Shown: positions 7,211-63,007 of the stretch, piece after piece
Layout: each line of letters opens with the position of its first letter
How positions within the stretch are numbered: position 1 is the first letter of the stretch
Source of the DNA: Nocardioides szechwanensis
Lineage (GTDB): Bacteria > Actinomycetota > Actinomycetes > Propionibacteriales > Nocardioidaceae
Direction: 5' to 3'
Length of the DNA stretch: 64,000 nucleotides
NCBI RefSeq assembly: GCF_900103935.1
Contig: NZ_FNIC01000007.1
Span: 1 to 64,000 of the forward strand
The notes under the pieces: generated by a model
The model's input: the letters and a program-made list of their open reading frames with translations, nothing else
Told to the model about the DNA's origin: nothing
The model's database searches: none
Translations under genes and position numbers: made by a program

Positions 7211-7258
7211 GCCATCCACCAACTGGGTACCTAAGGTGAACGCCCAAAGGAGGCTGCC

Positions 7259-7462
7259 ATGAAGAGCCTGATCGGAATCATCGTCGTCGTGTGGCTCGTG
7301 GTCGGGGTGCTCGCTGCTTTTCAGCGGGGCTACTTCGGTGACGACCGCGACGTGAACTGCAAGACGTTCGGCGACACGTCGCTGACGATCCTCGCCGGAC
7401 CGCTCAACTACGTCGGCGTCAACCCGAAGATCGAGTGCAGGACACCTCAGCCCTCGAAGTGA
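7259..7462 (+). CDS. Small single-pass membrane protein, unknown function
   Basis: This 67-residue protein has one N-terminal hydrophobic segment (about residues 3-20) and a short soluble tail with two cysteines (Cys34 and Cys60). A strong Shine-Dalgarno AAAGGAGG sits 6 nt before the ATG. I do not recognise a domain. It sits between the hybrid kinase and a LuxR-type regulator on the same strand, so a link to signalling is possible but not shown. Confidence 0.75.
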   Translation: MKSLIGIIVVVWLVVGVLAAFQRGYFGDDRDVNCKTFGDTSLTILAGPLNYVGVNPKIECRTPQPSK

Positions 7463-18407: not shown

Positions 18408-18791
18408 ATGACGTACGACGGGGTCGCGACCGCGAGAGCGGTGCTGGACCGTCTCGAAGCAGGCATCGCGGCCGGCGACCTCTCCTTGCTCTCAGAGCTC
18501 TGCGCCGGGGATGTCGTGCTGTTCGGCTCGTCACGTGCCAGCTTCGGGCACGAGGAGACTGTCGGTTACCTGGAGCTGGTGGCGCAGGCGAACACGATCA
18601 AGTGGCTCCTCGACCGCTGGTCGGTGATCCACCAGGACGACGAGCAGCTGCTGGTGGCCGCCGTCGGACAGGTCGAGTTCGACGACGGGACAGGCCCCCA
18701 ACGCGCGGATTTCCGGCTCACGCTGTGGCTGGTGCGGGAGGACGGCGAGTGGCGGCTTCGACACTTCCACGGATCCGTCCCTGCGGCCTGA
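18408..18791 (+). CDS. SnoaL/NTF2-like fold protein
   Basis: A 127-residue single-domain protein of the SnoaL/NTF2 cone fold, seen from the pattern of two N-terminal helices (ARAVLDRLEAGIAAGDLSLLSELCAGD) and the closing strands (WLVREDGEWRLRHFHGS). Such proteins bind small ligands, or act as isomerases or calcium/calmodulin-type association domains, and the ligand cannot be told. It ends 27 nt before the left boundary of the integrated element. Confidence 0.78.
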   Translation: MTYDGVATARAVLDRLEAGIAAGDLSLLSELCAGDVVLFGSSRASFGHEETVGYLELVAQANTIKWLLDRWSVIHQDDEQLLVAAVGQVEFDDGTGPQRADFRLTLWLVREDGEWRLRHFHGSVPAA

Positions 18792-18817
18792 GCCCGGTGC
18801 CGTCAAGATTCCGGTGC

Positions 18818-18863
18818 CGTGGGGCGGGTGGGGCTCGAACCCACGACCCAAGGATTATGAGTC
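18818..18863 (-). repeat. Attachment site, distal copy (attR-like)
   Basis: This is a perfect 46-bp copy of the 3' portion of the CAU tRNA gene found at 25384-25457. It starts one base outside the discriminator position and stops inside the anticodon stem. It is not a functional tRNA because the 5' half is absent. Confidence 0.92.
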
Positions 18864-19418
18864 GGTTTGCGCCTAATCGCCTTCGTAGTGGGTAGGACTG
18901 ATTCGTGCTTGGCCGTGGCCGTGATGACCGTTTTCAACCGTCGTTGTGGCAGGCCATCCTGGTGCGTTGCGTAGCACTCCGTTAGCAACCGAGTAGCCAA
19001 CCGACTCCGTCGTTGTCGGTGCACACACCAAGCGGCGTGTGGCCATGGTTTTCCACCATCCGCTCAGCCGATGAGCGGTCAGTGGCTCAACCGAGAGCCC
19101 GGCTTCCCCGGCCCGCATGTCTTGACTAAGGCCGGGTACCGAGCCGTTGTCGGAACGCTTACCCGCTCGGGGTGACTTCTCACCACCGCGGGTGGACCTT
19201 CGGCAGTACCACTGGGGACGATCCCTTCCGGCAGCGGCGGGGAGCGTTGCACACGGAAAACGTGTGCCCTCCTCTTGCAGGCCCCGACGTGGGGCAGGTT
19301 CGGGGAGGGCTGGGAGTCTTTCCGTCACGCTGGGTGCGCGGAACTGTCGATGACAGGCGTTGCGGACTCCCAGTCTCGGCGAGGTCAATCGCCGCCCATC
19401 AGTTCGGGACGTCGGATA
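18864..19418. other. Non-coding stretch dominated by hairpins
   Basis: This stretch of about 550 bases next to the left attachment site contains no gene I would support. One 171-codon minus frame is open, but its composition is not protein-like and it is probably a by-product of GC content. The hairpin block is described in the ncRNA entry. Confidence 0.6.
18950..19373. ncRNA. Candidate structured RNA or single-strand DNA origin (dense perfect hairpins)
   Basis: Perfect stems follow one another. CAGG/CCTG is at 18950-18961 and CCGCTCA/TGAGCGG at 19060-19078. GGCTC/GAGCC is at 19084-19099, CCCGGCC/GGCCGGG at 19107-19136 and CCGAGC/GCTCGG at 19139-19170. GGTGA/TCACC is at 19171-19184 and GCACACG/CGTGTGC with a GAAAA loop at 19249-19267. 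CCCTCC/GGAGGG at 19267-19309 encloses GCCCC/GGGGC. CTGGGAGTC/GACTCCCAG at 19310-19373 encloses CTGTC/GACAG. An 8-bp stem at 19022-19041 has an A-C mismatch on plus that becomes a G-U pair on minus; weak U-G extensions of the last stem favour plus. Strand is therefore open, and no known family was recognised. Confidence 0.45.
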
Positions 19419-19673
19419 TCAGCCCATCATCGCCTGGTGACCCGGCGAGTTCATCACGTGCTCGTGGCCGGGTGACGCCATGAAGTTCTCGTGTCCCGGC
19501 GAGTTCATCATCATGTGCATCCCGGGGGGCATGTCGCTCATCGCTACGGTCGCCGTAGGGCTGGACGTGATGCTCGCGTCGTTGGCTTGCGATGCAAGCG
19601 CCGCGCCGGGAACGGCAAGCAGTGCGATCGCGGCGGCGCTGCCGACGAGTGCTGAACGAAGTTGGATTCTCAT
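19419..19673 (-). CDS. Small secreted Met/His-rich protein with SPGH repeats
   Basis: An 84-residue precursor with a clear signal peptide (cleavage after ALA, about residue 27). The mature part of about 57 residues holds 10 Met and 5 His and ends in three tandem 9-residue repeats: SPGHENFMA, SPGHEHVMN, SPGHQAMMG. Met/His clusters of this kind bind copper or silver in other secreted proteins, so metal binding outside the cell is a reasonable inference. AGGAAAGGA lies 5 nt before the ATG. It is cargo of the integrated element and lies beside the hairpin block. Confidence 0.75.
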   Translation of the reverse strand: MRIQLRSALVGSAAAIALLAVPGAALASQANDASITSSPTATVAMSDMPPGMHMMMNSPGHENFMASPGHEHVMNSPGHQAMMG

Positions 19674-19771
19674 GTTGGTCCTTTCCTGGGTCCAATACCT
19701 CCACACTCCTCCTCCGACGTGAAGAACCTGTTAAGGCTCGGTAGAGCCTTGGTGGGGACTGCCCAGGGATC

Positions 19772-21761: not shown

Positions 21762-23102
21762 GGGGCCCACCGCGTGATCCGGTGGTTGCACTCTAGGCAG
21801 TGAGCGCGGCGGGTGTCAGGTCCTCCTTCTGCATGGTGGTCTCGGTGGTGTTGATCAGGGCCATGCGGGAGCGGGCCAGGACCTCGAGTCCGAGGTAGCG
21901 GCGGCCTTCGATCCAGTCGTCGTGTTGCTCGGCCAGGACGGCTCCGATGAGGCGGATCGCGGAGGTGCGGTCGGGGAAGATCCCGACGACGTCGGTGCGG
22001 CGGCGGATCTCGCGGTTGAGCCGCTCTTGGGGGTTGTTGGACCAGATCTGGCGCCAGATCTCCTTGGGGAACGCGGTGAAGGCGAGGATGTCGGCGCGGG
22101 CTTCCTCGAGATGGTCGTGGACCTGGGGCAGCTTGTCGGCCACGGTGTCGAGGAGCTTGTCGAACTGGGCGTGCACGGCCTTGGCGTCGGGCTGGTCATA
22201 GACCGAGTGCAGCATCGCTTTCACTCCGGGCCAGGCGTGCTTGGGACAGATCGCCATCAGGTTGGCGGCGTAGTGGGTGCGGCACCGCTGCCACGTCGCG
22301 CCCTCTAGCGTCGCGCCCAGGGCCGCGACGAGGCCGGAGTGGGCATCGGAGGTGACCAGCTTGACGCCGGACAGGCCGCGGGCGTTGAGGCCGCGGAACA
22401 GGGTCAGCCAGCCGGCCTCGGACTCGGCTGAGCAGATGTCGAGGCCGAGGATCTCGCGGTGCCCGTCGGCGTTGACGCCGGTCGCGACCAGGACGTGGGT
22501 GTTGAGGACCCGTCCGCCCTCGCGGACCTTCATCGTCAAGGCGTCCGCGGCCAGGAGCGTGTACGGGCCCTGGTCCAGGGGCCGGGTCCGGAAGTCCTCG
22601 ACGTGGGCGTCGAGCTCTTTGGCCATCGCCGAGACCTGCGACTTCGACAGCCGGGTGATGCCCAAGTTTCGATCGGCTTCTCCATCCGCCGGGTCGAGAC
22701 CCCGAGCAGGTAGCAGGTCGCGACCACCGTGGTCAGCGCCCGCTCCGCCCGCCGCCGGCGCTCGAGCAGCCAATCCGGGAAGTAGGAGCCCTCGCGCAGC
22801 TTGGGGATCGCGACCTCCATCGTCCCGGTGCGGGTGTCGAAGTCGCGGGTCCGGTACCCGTTGCGGGAGTTGACCCGCTCCGCCGAGCGCTCCCCGTAGC
22901 CGGCGCCGCAGATCGCGTCGGCCTCGGCCGACATCAACGCCTGCACGAACGTGGAGAGCATGTTGCGGAGCAGGTCGGGCTCGGCGCGCTGCAGGTGCTC
23001 GGCCATGAACGCGGGCAGGTCAATAGAGTTGGGGTCGACGGTCATCGTGGTGACTCCTTCAGTCGTGCTTTCGCAGGTCTTCTGAAGGATCACGCGGTGG
23101 CC
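21762..23102 (-). mobile_element. IS256-family insertion sequence
   Basis: The ends share the inverted repeat CCACCGCGTGATCC: 21767-21780 on plus and, reversed, 23087-23100. A frameshifted IS256-family transposase gene fills the 1.3 kb between them. No clear 8-bp target duplication is visible in the flanks. The exact outer boundaries are uncertain by a few bases. Confidence 0.85.
21793..23045 (-). pseudogene. IS256-family transposase, broken by a 1-nt deletion
   Basis: The N-terminal part (MTVDPNSIDLPAFMAEHLQR) reads from the ATG at 23045 through TCYLLGVSTRRMEKPIET. There the frame shifts, and the rest continues in another frame from LGITRLSKSQVSAMAKELDA to the stop at 21793. The join near 22665 reads as if one base is missing. 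The catalytic Asp (AADALTMKV), second Asp (VTSDAHSG) and Glu (NNPQERLNREIRRRT) are all present in the second frame. Joined, the protein would be about 417 residues, normal for the family. Programmed shifting is not usual here, so it is a mutation or a sequence error. Confidence 0.9.
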
Positions 23103-23425: not shown

Positions 23426-24061
23426 ATGGACCTGAATGCATCCCGATGGACCAGCGTCGAGGGCAGTGACTACGAGTTCGATGACCGGTCTGCCGGTGGA
23501 GAGTGGCTCAGGGTGCGAGGCGGTGGCCTCAGCGACGTCCTCGAGGTCAAGTTCGCACTCGTGGGCGGGACCTTCCGACTGACTGGGCTCCAGTTCGACA
23601 GCGGGCGACCACTGGAGGCCCGGCTCCTGCGAGAGCCCCGCATTCAGGCTATCGAGGCCGCCTTTGCGTCATACCGGCCGAGGGCCGTAGAGCGGTTGAG
23701 TGACGCACACGAGCACTTCGAGGGCCTCCCGGCCGGCGACATGACAGACGCCGAAGCGGAGGACCACTACTCCACCCTCCGCGTCCTCGATCAGATGCAG
23801 GCTTCTGAGGACGCCTGGACGGCCAGGTTGAGCGAGGCAGGCGAGGCAGTGCCCCTGCGCCCTCGTGGCCGGGGGGCGTCCCCTCCCTCAGACCAGGAGC
23901 TCGCCTCGTTCGCGCGTGAGCTGACCAAGCAGCAACTGGCCGGTCGCGGTGCGGTGACTCGTACATCGGCCTCCATCGGGATCAACCGAAGCACGGCGTA
24001 CCGCTGGATCGAGACGTGCAGAGAGCGCGGCTATCTACCCCCGAAAGAGGATCGGCAATGA
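23426..24061 (+). CDS. Element protein with C-terminal helix-turn-helix, upstream of integrase
   Basis: A 211-residue protein. The N-terminal 150 residues are not recognised. The last 50 include SASIGINRSTAYRWIETCRERGYL, a helix-turn-helix of the kind that reads DNA. Its stop overlaps the integrase start (ATGA), so both are made together; it may act as a recombination directionality factor or regulator. It starts downstream of the palindromic operator. Confidence 0.72.
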   Translation: MDLNASRWTSVEGSDYEFDDRSAGGEWLRVRGGGLSDVLEVKFALVGGTFRLTGLQFDSGRPLEARLLREPRIQAIEAAFASYRPRAVERLSDAHEHFEGLPAGDMTDAEAEDHYSTLRVLDQMQASEDAWTARLSEAGEAVPLRPRGRGASPPSDQELASFARELTKQQLAGRGAVTRTSASIGINRSTAYRWIETCRERGYLPPKEDRQ

Positions 24062-25308
24062 CGGGCAAGATGAAGGACGGCGTCATCCAGCGAGGGAAGA
24101 CGTTCTCCTACGTCATCTACGAGCCCAACACCGCGACCGGCAAGAAGAGGCAGCGGTGGGTAGGCGGGTTCCCGACTCGCAGGGCGGCAAAGGAAGCCCG
24201 GGATGCCGCCCGTCACAGCGTCAACAGCGGCACCTACGTCGCCCCCCAAGACCTGACGGTCGCCGCGTGGCTAGACCGTTGGATGGACGGCCACGAGGTG
24301 GAGTTGAAGCCGTCCACCGCGAAGACGTACCGCGACAAGATCCGGCTATACCTCGTGCCCGCACTGGGCCACGAGCGGGTCCAGGCACTTTCGCCGAGCC
24401 GCCTGTCGGTCGCGTGGCGGGAGATGAAGGCGAGCGGCGGGAAGGACGGGAAGCCGCTGGCTCCACGAACTGTCGAGTTCGCCCGCGCTGTACTGCGTAA
24501 GGCGATGGAAGACGCCGTGGTCGAGCGCGTGATCACTGTCAATCCTGTCATCGGCTCCAAGATGGCCAAGCGCGACGGGAAGCCGAAGCACACCACGTGG
24601 ACGGGGACACAACTCGCAGCCTTCCTCGACGACGTCTCAGAAGACCGATGGACTCCTCTGTGGCAGACCCTGGCGTCGACCGGGATGCGGCGAGGCGAGG
24701 TTGCCGGTCTCCGCTGGGACGACATAGACCTCGACGCTGGGACGATCTTCGTAGGGCGATCCACCACCCAGTTGAAGCAGGAGAGGGTCACAACCACCCC
24801 GAAGAACCACGAGCGTCGGACGGTGGCCATCGACGCCGAGCTCGGCTCGGCCCTGCGGGCGTGGAGAGCGGTCACCGCCGCCGAGCGTCTGGCGTTCGGA
24901 CCGGGCTACGCAGACCGCGACTCGACCGTATTCCTCTGGCCTGATGGCCGACCGATCCTGCCTGACTACATAACCAAGACCTTCGCCAGGGCGCAAGCGA
25001 CGGCCAACAAGAACGCGGCTGCCCGACAGTCAGGGCGAGGCTCAGACGAACCGGCACCCGTCCTGCCCAAGTTGATCGTCCACGAACTACGGCACACTCA
25101 CGCGACCATCCTGCTGCGGGACAAGGTGCCCGTTCACGTCGTTGCCAAGCGACTCGGGCACAAGGACCCCTCGGTGACGCTCAATGTGTACGCCGACGTG
25201 ATCCCAGACGACGACACCAGCGCCGTCGACGTCTTCCGACAGGCAGTTTGGGGTGCTTGCCGGTGGGCGCGCACCCGAGCACGCACGCCTGTTCGACTGG
25301 CGGGTTAG
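24058..25308 (+). CDS. int: Tyrosine-type site-specific integrase
   Basis: A 416-residue phage-type integrase. An N-terminal AP2-like arm-binding region (about 12-50) is followed by a SAM-like core-binding domain (LTVAAWLDRWMDGH, about 68-165) and the catalytic domain. The active-site residues are R211 (STGMRRGE), H342 and R345 (HELRH), H368 (LGHKD) and the nucleophile Y378 (LNVYADV). All are intact. I chose the ATG at 24058, with AGAGG upstream, overlapping the previous stop. It presumably recombines at the 46-bp tRNA repeats. Confidence 0.95.
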   Translation: MTGKMKDGVIQRGKTFSYVIYEPNTATGKKRQRWVGGFPTRRAAKEARDAARHSVNSGTYVAPQDLTVAAWLDRWMDGHEVELKPSTAKTYRDKIRLYLVPALGHERVQALSPSRLSVAWREMKASGGKDGKPLAPRTVEFARAVLRKAMEDAVVERVITVNPVIGSKMAKRDGKPKHTTWTGTQLAAFLDDVSEDRWTPLWQTLASTGMRRGEVAGLRWDDIDLDAGTIFVGRSTTQLKQERVTTTPKNHERRTVAIDAELGSALRAWRAVTAAERLAFGPGYADRDSTVFLWPDGRPILPDYITKTFARAQATANKNAAARQSGRGSDEPAPVLPKLIVHELRHTHATILLRDKVPVHVVAKRLGHKDPSVTLNVYADVIPDDDTSAVDVFRQAVWGACRWARTRARTPVRLAG

Positions 25309-25381: not shown

Positions 25382-25427
25382 CGTGGGGCGGGTGGGGCTC
25401 GAACCCACGACCCAAGGATTATGAGTC
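25382..25427 (-). repeat. Attachment site within the tRNA gene (attL-like)
   Basis: The 46-bp repeat covers the 3' part of the intact tRNA gene plus two bases beyond it and is identical to 18818-18863. The crossover must lie within this segment. The repeat restores a whole tRNA after integration. Confidence 0.92.
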
Positions 25428-25457
25428 CTCTGCTCTGACCGACTGAGCTACCGCCCC
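25384..25457 (-). tRNA. tRNA with CAU anticodon (Met, or Ile2)
   Basis: The minus strand folds as a standard 74-nt tRNA. The acceptor stem pairs GGGGCGG with CCGCCCC, and the anticodon loop is CTCATAA. The T arm reads GTGGGTTCGAGCCCCAC and the discriminator base is A. CCA is not encoded. CAU can be elongator Met or lysidine-modified Ile2; I cannot separate them with certainty. Confidence 0.93.
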
Positions 25458-33349: not shown

Positions 33350-33414
33350 GCGTCGAGTGACGTGCGGGGCCGGGGTGAGGGGGGATTTCACCGGCCCCGC
33401 ACGTCACTCGACGC
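33350..33414. repeat. Perfect 24-bp inverted repeat between divergent genes
   Basis: The arms are 33350-33373 (beginning GCGTCGAGTGACG) and 33391-33414, perfectly complementary over 24 bp, with a 17-nt GC-rich spacer. It lies between the LCP gene start (33243) and the deacetylase start (33443). The right arm ends 28 nt before the ATG, so the hairpin would fall in the deacetylase leader. It may be a dispersed palindromic repeat or a control element. Confidence 0.8.
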
Positions 33415-59777: not shown

Positions 59778-61373
59778 GTGAGGTACGACGCGGTCGTCGT
59801 CGGAGCCGGACCCAACGGTCTGGCGTCGGCCAACAAACTGGCCGACGCCGGCTGGTCGGTGCTGCTCCTGGAGGCGCAGACCGAGGTGGGCGGCGCCGTA
59901 CGAAGCGACCGCGAGCTCGACCCGGAGTTCGTGCACGACACGTTCAGCGCGTTCTACCCGCTGGCCGCCTCCTCGCGCGGGCTGGCGGCGTTCGGGCTGG
60001 AGGAGCACGGCCTCGCGTGGCGGCACGCGCCGGCGGTGCTCGGCCACCCGCTGCCCGACGGCCGGTGGGCGCTGCTGCACCGCGACCGCCAGGTGACCGC
60101 CCGGCTTATGGACGAGCAGCACCCCGGCGACGGTGACGCCTGGCTCGACCTCTGCGCTGTCTGGGACCGGATCGGGGACCCGCTCGTCTCGGCCCTGGTC
60201 TCGCCGTTCCCCCCGGTGCGGCCCGGGCTCTCCCTGCTGACGCGGCTGCGCGGAGCCGGCGGCCTCGACCTCGTGAAGACGCTGCTCACGCCGGCCATGG
60301 AGCTGGGACGCCGTGGCTTCGGCGGCGAGTCCGCCGGCCTGCTGGTCGCGGGCAACGCCGGCCACGCGGACCTGCCGCTCGACGCCCCCGGCTCCGGGGT
60401 GTTCGGGCTGCTGCTGACGATGCTTGGCCAGACCGTGGGCTTCCCGGTGCCCGAGGGCGGCGCCGGCCGGCTGAGCCAGGCGCTGGCGCGGCGGCTGGAG
60501 TCGCTCGGTGGCGAGATCCTCTGCGACTCGGAGGTCGCGCACGTCGTCGTCGAGCACGGTCGCGCAGTGGGCGTCATCACGACCGACGGCCGGCGCTACG
60601 ACGCCGGGCGGGCCGTGGTCGCCGACGTCAGCGCCACCCGCCTGTTCGGCGGGCTCGTCGACGCCGCCCACCTGCCGGCCCGGGTGAACCGCGGGATGCG
60701 CGACTTCCAGCTCGACCCGGGCACGGTCAAGGTCGACTGGGCCCTCGACGGCACCCTCCCGTGGGCCTCCCCGCCGGCCCACGCCCCGGGCACGTTCCAC
60801 GTCGCCGACTCGGTCTCCGAGATGACTGAGGCCCTCGGGCAGGTGGCGGCCGGCGTCATCCCCGCCCGCCCTTTCCTGCTGGCCGGTCAGATGACCACCT
60901 CCGACCCCACCCGCTCCCCCGCCGGCACCGAGTCCCTGTGGGCCTACACCCACGTCCCGCAGCCCGATCGCACGGTGCGCGACGCCGGTGAGGGCGGCGT
61001 ACGCGGCGTCTGGGACGCCTCGGACTGCGAGCGCTTCGCCGACCGGATGCAGGCCCGCATCGAGCGGCTCGCCCCCGGCTTCGGCTCCCGGGTCCGCGCA
61101 CGCCGGGTGCTCGGGCCCCGCGAGCTCGAGGCCCGCAACGCCAACCTCGTCGGTGGCGCCATCAACGGCGGCACCGCCCAGCTCCACCAGCAGCTCTTCC
61201 TGCGCCCGGTCCCCGGTCTCCTGGGGCGTCCCGAGACCGGCGTACCCGGTCTCTACCTGGGCTCCGCCTCCGCCCACCCCGGCGGTGGCGTCCACGGCGC
61301 CCCTGGCCTCAACGCCGCCCGCGCCGCCCTCCTCCACCACCGGCTCGGGCGTCTCAACCCCCGTCGTCGTTGA
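59778..61373 (+). CDS. Phytoene-desaturase-like FAD oxidoreductase
   Basis: A 531-residue FAD protein. VVGAGPNGLASANKLADAGW is the dinucleotide motif and LEAQTEVGGAVRS its continuation. The C-terminal signature GLYLGSASAHPGGGVHG places it with CrtI-like carotenoid or retinol oxidoreductases (CrtI/RetSat group). GTG start 2 nt after the previous stop. The stop codon lies within a half-copy of the TTGACCCGCCCGAAA repeat. Confidence 0.87.
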   Translation: MRYDAVVVGAGPNGLASANKLADAGWSVLLLEAQTEVGGAVRSDRELDPEFVHDTFSAFYPLAASSRGLAAFGLEEHGLAWRHAPAVLGHPLPDGRWALLHRDRQVTARLMDEQHPGDGDAWLDLCAVWDRIGDPLVSALVSPFPPVRPGLSLLTRLRGAGGLDLVKTLLTPAMELGRRGFGGESAGLLVAGNAGHADLPLDAPGSGVFGLLLTMLGQTVGFPVPEGGAGRLSQALARRLESLGGEILCDSEVAHVVVEHGRAVGVITTDGRRYDAGRAVVADVSATRLFGGLVDAAHLPARVNRGMRDFQLDPGTVKVDWALDGTLPWASPPAHAPGTFHVADSVSEMTEALGQVAAGVIPARPFLLAGQMTTSDPTRSPAGTESLWAYTHVPQPDRTVRDAGEGGVRGVWDASDCERFADRMQARIERLAPGFGSRVRARRVLGPRELEARNANLVGGAINGGTAQLHQQLFLRPVPGLLGRPETGVPGLYLGSASAHPGGGVHGAPGLNAARAALLHHRLGRLNPRRR

Positions 61374-61434
61374 CCCGCCCGAAACTGACCGCGCTCCTTG
61401 TTGACCCGCCCGAAAGTTTCGGGCGGGTCAACGT
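61369..61434. repeat. Palindromic repeat, copy 1, with an upstream half-copy
   Basis: GTTGACCCGCCCGAAA (61400-61415), a G and its exact complement (61417-61432) form a 33-nt palindrome with 16-bp arms. A half-copy of the same arm lies at 61369-61384 and includes the stop codon of the previous gene. The same unit occurs at 62971-63007. Confidence 0.9.
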
Positions 61435-62970: not shown

Positions 62971-63007
62971 ACGTTGACCCGCCCGAAAGTTTCGGGCGGG
63001 TCAACGT
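62971..63007. repeat. Palindromic repeat, copy 2 (bidirectional terminator-like)
   Basis: ACGTTGACCCGCCCGAAA, a single G, and the exact complement form a perfect 37-nt palindrome with 18-bp arms. It sits 3 nt after one stop codon and 4 nt before the stop of the convergent gene, a position for a two-way terminator. There is no T-run on either side. Confidence 0.9.

What the first reader, a model, noticed from the sequence alone, without database searches (positions are those of the whole stretch)
18950..19373. Dense run of perfect hairpins in a mobile element, no known family recognised
At least ten perfect stems of 4-9 bp, several nested, fill about 420 bases next to the distal attachment site. 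Examples are CTGGGAGTC/GACTCCCAG enclosing CTGTC/GACAG, and CCCTCC/GGAGGG enclosing GCCCC/GGGGC. This is more order than GC content alone should give. It fits a large structured RNA, or a fold-back DNA origin such as an sso/sti or oriT of an actinobacterial element. Wobble evidence for strand is mixed.
Basis: partly seen in the sequence, partly recalled or inferred. Interest (0 to 1): 0.75.

Follow-up and report, generated by a model that had tools for sequence, protein, structure and literature searches.

The report
Conserved folded RNA beside attachment sites
A run of hairpins inside a small mobile DNA element of a soil bacterium contains a conserved folded core, found at one other chromosomal spot in two related species, that looks like a rare undescribed non-coding RNA of unknown function.

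Summary
The hairpins are real: window 18950-19388 folds 3.1 (+) and 3.4 (-) standard deviations below shuffles, close to the distal copy of a 46-bp tRNA-Met attachment core. No Rfam family matches. The block is composite. Its core, 19149-19313, has a 77%-identical homologue in two other Nocardioides genomes, there just outside an integrated element, on the chromosomal side of a tRNA-Val attachment core. The conserved fold is that of the + strand: a structure predicted from the window alone keeps 53 of 58 pairs in the homologue (0 of 5000 random placements do as well); in reverse 49 of 58 (126 of 5000). The - strand passes neither test, although by energy alone it folds as well or better. Changes show no codon periodicity and indels are not in threes. 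Best reading: a rare stand-alone structured RNA carried by a decayed integrative element. A fold-back replication origin is a weaker rival: a sister element that encodes a rolling-circle Rep has nothing similar at that place. Limits: only two independent loci, no transcript data, no known partner.

The parts
18950..19394 (.). whole hairpin-rich block, composite: unique 5' section, conserved core, 3' hairpins
18950..19148 (.). 5' section rich in hairpins, no homologue found; folds better on - (z -4.64) than on + (z -2.49); may be a separate feature
19149..19313 (+). conserved core of the proposed RNA (77% identical to the G163 locus)
19149..19204 (+). H0: GUCGGA 19149-19154 pairs UUCGGC 19199-19204; in the predicted fold of the G163 core, same letters in the window; encloses H1 and H2
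19161..19193 (+). H1: ACCCGC 19161-19166 / GCGGGU 19188-19193; two pairs change to G-U in the homologues
19171..19184 (+). H2: GGUGA / UCACC, invariant
19217..19248 (+). H4: GACGAUCCCU.CC / GG.GGGGAGCGUU; one pair C-G to U-A on both sides, two one-sided changes kept, one A-G mismatch in the window (C-G in the homologues)
19249..19267 (+). H5: GCACACG / CGUGUGC; three of its five compared pairs change between A-U or G-C and G-U
19266..19310 (+). H6: GCCCUCC / GGAGGGC plus two pairs, with an inner GCCCC/GGGGC; outer part conserved, inner part not
19310..19373 (.). 9-bp hairpin CTGGGAGTC/GACTCCCAG enclosing CTGTC/GACAG; absent from the homologues
19377..19394 (.). hairpin CGGCGA/TCGCCG without a T run; possible 3' end of the RNA (inferred)
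18818..18863 (-). distal att core, 46-bp exact copy of the tRNA-Met 3' part
25382..25427 (-). proximal att core inside tRNA-Met 25383-25457
24016..25308 (+). tyrosine integrase of the element
23426..24061 (+). HTH-like protein of the element, 57% identical to its counterpart in the G428 sister element

Best explanation
Window 19149-19313 (+) is the core of a stand-alone structured non-coding RNA. Shown: the + strand folds into one well-defined set of helices (a long two-part hairpin H0-H1-H2, then H4, H5 and H6); that fold is kept in a homologous locus of two other Nocardioides; the sequence does not change like a protein gene. Inferred: it is transcribed from +, its transcript may run on to the hairpin at 19377-19394, and it acts in trans, most likely by binding a protein or another RNA, because no gene was recognised after it on + that it could control in cis. 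In the window it rides on a decayed 6.5-kb tRNA-Met integrative element; in the other two species it lies on the chromosomal side of a tRNA-Val attachment core, perhaps left by an older element (inferred).
For: Fold of one sequence judged on the other, core 19149-19313: + window to G163 53 of 58 pairs kept, 0 of 5000 random placements of the same substitutions as many; + G163 to window 49 of 58, 126 of 5000; - strand 41 of 54 (1042 of 5000) and 37 of 55 (4731 of 5000). Ensemble diversity on +: window 10.9 against 39.2 in shuffles (4 of 200 as low), G163 7.9 against 38.4 (1 of 200); on -: 87 of 200 and 12 of 200 as low. In a combined structure 12 variable pairs between window and G163 give 23 of 24 standard cells on +, 13 of 24 on - (that structure was drawn from the same sequences). 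The one G163/G359 difference in the core turns G-U into G-C on +. Substitutions by codon position 12/14/10; internal indels of 1, 1, 2 and 1 bases. Two separate genomic settings.
Against: Only two independent loci; G163 and G359 share one locus. With three rows the pair-shuffle control is not significant (60 of 500), and RNAalifold's covariation term is small (-2.75, then 0.02). By energy the - strand is as good or better for the whole block, the G163 locus and the G163 core. A first version of the fold test with 11 bases cut off gave only 772 of 2000 for G163 to window on +. The low divergence of the RNA between G163 and G359 (1 in 213) is shared by its neighbours (1 in 59, 0 in 28, 5 in 292), so it does not single out the RNA. 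No promoter or T-run terminator was found. The sister element G428 lacks it. No transcript data.
Confidence: 0.66

Rival explanations
1. A fold-back DNA origin (single-strand origin, sti-like site or transfer origin) of a rolling-circle integrative element: the + strand becomes single-stranded, folds, and is recognised by host RNA polymerase or a relaxase.
For: As single-stranded DNA the + strand folds well (z -3.32, 0 of 100). The sister element G428 encodes a G2P-type Rep (PF05144, 24.1 bits against a cut-off of 21.7). An sso is a folded single strand with several stem-loops that RNA polymerase can recognise, and structure may count more than sequence (PMC4595007, passages). G-T pairs are also tolerated in DNA, so the strand result fits.
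Against: At the same place G428 is not unusually folded (z +0.39/-1.23) and not homologous. No trace of that Rep in the window element (tblastn). In G163/G359 the core lies outside the present element, on the chromosomal side. No similar DNA in phage or plasmid collections.
Confidence: 0.14
2. A - strand RNA, such as a structured 3' end or terminator array of the small gene on the - strand next to it.
For: Best energies are often on - (with 77, 99, 103 with 104); in both settings an open frame on - ends about 30 bases away and points at the block.
Against: The - folds are not kept between window and G163; RNAalifold puts a +4.23 penalty on - against 0.02 on +; the neighbouring - frames are unrelated by eye.
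Confidence: 0.09
3. The window copy is a fossil: a once functional RNA or origin now decaying inside a broken element.
For: The element carries a transposase gene split over two frames and shows no Rep; the window has a mismatch in H4 and a different inner part of H6.
Against: 37 substitutions separate window and G163 in the core, yet helices are kept; integrase and its HTH neighbour are open.
Confidence: 0.08
4. Nothing but GC-rich chance hairpins.
For: Three other places of the window fold better; long stems with long loops are not in excess.
Against: Strand-specific fold kept in a homologue; excess of short hairpins.
Confidence: 0.03

Closest known systems
Large structured RNAs of phages and mobile elements (GOLLD, ROOL; known to me from recall and from the listing)
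   Same: Multi-helix non-coding RNA without a partner protein gene in view, near tRNAs or on mobile DNA
   Different: No Rfam match; the conserved core here is about 165 nt, those RNAs are several times longer (recalled)
Single-strand origins of rolling-circle elements (sso1 of ICEBs1, PMC4595007, passages read; sti of pIJ101, recalled)
   Same: Several stem-loops on one strand of an integrative element; a related element has a rolling-circle Rep
   Different: Core also kept on the chromosomal side of an attachment core in two species; sister element with the Rep lacks it; no DNA similarity to plasmids
Actinomycete tRNA-integrating elements (AICE/IME)
   Same: tRNA att core, tyrosine integrase, HTH gene; the sister element has a G2P-type Rep, an XRE and an HTH_17-like protein
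   Different: The window copy is reduced and interrupted; no transfer gene was recognised among the 9 proteins scanned, and not every frame was tested

Membership tests
Any Rfam 15 RNA family | score at or above the family's gathering cut-off | tested here: not met
   0 of 3 gathering matches of the window lie here; 9 matches up to E 5 in 18700-19700, all below cut-off
GOLLD / ROOL | match to their covariance models | tested here: not met
   no such match
Stand-alone structured non-coding RNA | fold kept among homologues beyond chance | tested here: met
   + strand in both directions; but two independent loci only, and the pair-shuffle control with three rows is not significant
Stand-alone structured non-coding RNA | not protein-coding | tested here: met
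   codon positions 12/14/10, internal indels 1, 1, 2, 1
Stand-alone structured non-coding RNA | transcribed as a defined RNA | not testable with these tools
   no RNA-seq; no promoter-like or terminator-like site in 18780-19720
Single-strand origin (sso/sti) | one DNA strand folds into stable stem-loops | tested here: met
   + strand as DNA z -3.32; the other strand was not folded as DNA
Single-strand origin (sso/sti) | lies in an element that replicates by rolling circle | tested here: inconclusive
   G428 sister has a G2P-type Rep; window element has none by tblastn; G163/G359 copies lie outside the present element
Single-strand origin (sso/sti) | orientation-dependent priming of the second strand | not testable with these tools
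   needs an experiment
tRNA-targeting integrative element | direct repeat of the tRNA 3' part bounding a tyrosine integrase | tested here: met
   46-bp exact repeat, Phage_integrase 80.7 bits, same arrangement in G428
AICE | own Rep and FtsK-like transfer protein | tested here: inconclusive
   no Rep by tblastn with the G428 Rep; transfer proteins were not searched for as such

The most novel reading that the evidence does not exclude
An undescribed RNA family with a well-defined multi-helix fold that has travelled between tRNA-adjacent sites of Nocardioides on integrative elements, persists on the chromosome after its element is gone, and works in trans as an RNA or RNA-protein particle.
Probability: 0.4. 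Interest if true: 0.6.

Novelty: new member of a known kind. Interest (0 to 1): 0.43.

Why it matters
If confirmed it adds a new structured RNA family to bacterial mobile DNA, seen both inside a tRNA-integrating element and beside another tRNA attachment core on a chromosome. The analysis gives a strand, borders and helices, so one northern blot or one RNA-seq track can test it.

Tried and rejected
Rfam at gathering threshold and at E up to 5: nothing above a cut-off at this place. DNA similarity in phages and plasmids with the window block (E 1e-5) and the G163 locus (E 0.01): no match. Pattern scans of viral contigs, five patterns: 0 matches; the pattern could not have matched the window itself because of a one-base gap. 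Genome-contig pattern scan: 9 stretches; of these 1 (L014, Nocardioides lacusdianchii) matches the core model and 8 do not.

Covariance-model scans (overlapping sets, strict filters that can lose weak matches): order 391 genomes, 5 matches, 3 real; genus 215, 3 matches, all real; class 394, 4, 1 real; family 341, 11, 3 real; phylum 100, 3, 1 real. The 15 matches that I judged chance score 19.4-24.1 bits, the real ones 162.7-191.2. Of those 15, eleven loci were scanned for tRNAs: one (L079) has a tRNA-Tyr about 960 bases away, ten have none; L012, L013, L100 and L101 were not scanned. The four short BLAST matches (L003-L006) were read and look like unrelated, apparently coding DNA.

Considered and dropped, largely from recall: T-box (a GGGTGGACC resemblance not kept in G163), tRNA/tmRNA, group I/II intron, omega or bridge RNA, integron attC. 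The complement of the invariant segment GACCTTCGGCAGT occurs only at the RNA itself in 3 of 3 carrier genomes, so no perfect 13-base antisense target. A closing stem of the whole RNA (UGUCCGG/CUGGACA in G163; GACUCC 19003/GGAGUC 19313 in the window) was noticed by eye and not tested. G261's element (63% integrase) was fetched, but its attachment sites were not worked out.

Literature: searches returned 0 papers; 88 and 92 were seen as listings; PMC4595007 was read as passages. 'Not described' rests on these and on Rfam only.

Full report
WHERE IT IS. The window is bases 1-64000 of contig C16 of a 4.2-Mb genome. G163, labelled 'same genus', has a contig of 147850 bases with the same model score as a record of that length named Nocardioides lacusdianchii, so the genus is taken to be Nocardioides. 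A 46-bp exact repeat, the 3' part of tRNA-Met, lies at 25382-25427 and 18818-18863. Between the copies (6.5 kb) are a tyrosine integrase, a helix-turn-helix-like protein, and a Mutator-type transposase gene split over two frames. The hairpin block starts 86 bases inside the distal copy.

IS IT REAL. Yes. 18950-19388 folds 3.4 (-) and 3.1 (+) standard deviations below dinucleotide shuffles, 0 of 100 as low on either strand. Short perfect hairpins are about twice as many as expected, 25 against 12.7. In a coarse scan of 75 places on both strands, 6 to 7 of 150 folds are lower; six of these are three places that each hold a long palindrome. The 86 bases before the block are unstructured.

HOMOLOGUES. 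A DNA search of 293 genomes of the order found one clear relative, in G163, 77% identical over 170 columns. A two-sequence covariance model added G359. Scans of 215 genus, 394 class, 341 family and 100 phylum genomes, overlapping sets, gave no further convincing copy. Viral contigs, phages and plasmids gave none. The shared part is 19149-19313, plus nine letters at 19374-19382 that could be chance. The window's first 200 bases and its 9-bp hairpin are absent there.

SETTING OF THE HOMOLOGUES. In G163 an intact tRNA-Val (CAC) and a 22-bp copy of its 3' end bound a 15-kb element. The RNA starts 76 bases past the distal copy, on the chromosomal side. G163 and G359 are 96% alike over most of the flank, 78% in the integrase and 62% in the 88 bases just before the core, but 98% from the core onward: the element side diverges exactly at the core. 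Over 213 bases the RNA differs once; of 158 overlapping 213-base windows on the flank 4 differ as little, mean 8.3. But the stretches beside the RNA are also nearly identical (1 in 59, 0 in 28, 5 in 292), so this conservation is regional and not proof of selection on the RNA. G339, which shares the next genes, has no detectable copy at its locus.

WHICH STRAND. Energy leans to -: whole block -3.40 against -3.09, G163 locus -3.58 against -2.31, G163 core -4.61 against -2.30; only the window core favours + (-2.95 against -2.05). Comparison points to +. With the fold taken from one sequence and judged on the other, + keeps 53 of 58 pairs (0 of 5000 random placements) and, in reverse, 49 of 58 (126 of 5000); - keeps 41 of 54 (1042 of 5000) and 37 of 55 (4731 of 5000). 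An earlier version without the first 11 bases gave on + 0 of 2000 and 772 of 2000, on - 197 and 1909 of 2000. The + ensemble is unusually well defined in both species (4 and 1 of 200 shuffles as low), the - ensemble not in the window (87 of 200) and less so in G163 (12 of 200). In a combined structure, 12 variable pairs give 23 of 24 standard cells on + and 13 of 24 on -. The pair-shuffle control has little power with three rows and is not significant, 60 of 500.

NOT A PROTEIN, PROBABLY NOT CIS-REGULATORY. Substitutions fall 12/14/10 by codon position; internal indels are 1, 1, 2 and 1 bases. No gene was recognised on + after the block at either locus; short + frames exist in the mechanical lists and were not all tested.

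DNA ORIGIN? A sister element in G428 has the same tRNA-Met core, about 7.1 kb, a 69% identical integrase and a G2P-type Rep. A rolling-circle past of the window element is therefore plausible. Yet the matching place in G428 is not unusually folded (z +0.39/-1.23) and not homologous, and tblastn with that Rep finds nothing in the window element. This rival is kept at 0.14.

WHAT IT MOST LIKELY IS. A stand-alone structured RNA with a core of about 165 nt, perhaps longer in the window. Shown: a fold kept between loci, its strand, absence from Rfam, rarity in the genomes searched. Inferred: transcription, the 3' end, action in trans, movement with integrative elements. Unknown: partner and function.

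LIMITS.

Noticed in passing
61369-61432 and 62973-63005: A palindrome GTTGACCCGCCCGAAA / TTTCGGGCGGGTCAAC occurs twice about 1.6 kb apart, with one extra half copy; it makes these the most strongly folding places of the scan. Possibly a repeated terminator or REP-like element.
   Followed up: partly
33357-33407: Long palindrome GTGACGTGCGGGGCC / GGCCCCGCACGTCAC, a fold stronger than the finding.
   Followed up: no
19419-19706 (-): Open frame for a 95-aa protein with a signal-like start and a Met/His-rich repeated tail, on the strand that faces the block; no convincing family match.
   Followed up: partly
21793-23093 (-): Mutator-type transposase gene split over two frames inside the element.
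   Followed up: no
L091-L093 (G428 C2, about 2096000-2103100): Sister integrative element in the same tRNA-Met core, with a G2P-type Rep, an XRE protein and an HTH_17-like protein: a possible intact model of the window element.
   Followed up: partly
L070 (G339 C3), about 7215-7330: Two tRNA-Val 3'-end copies about 100 bases apart, the second degenerate, read by eye: a sign of repeated element turnover at this site.
   Followed up: no
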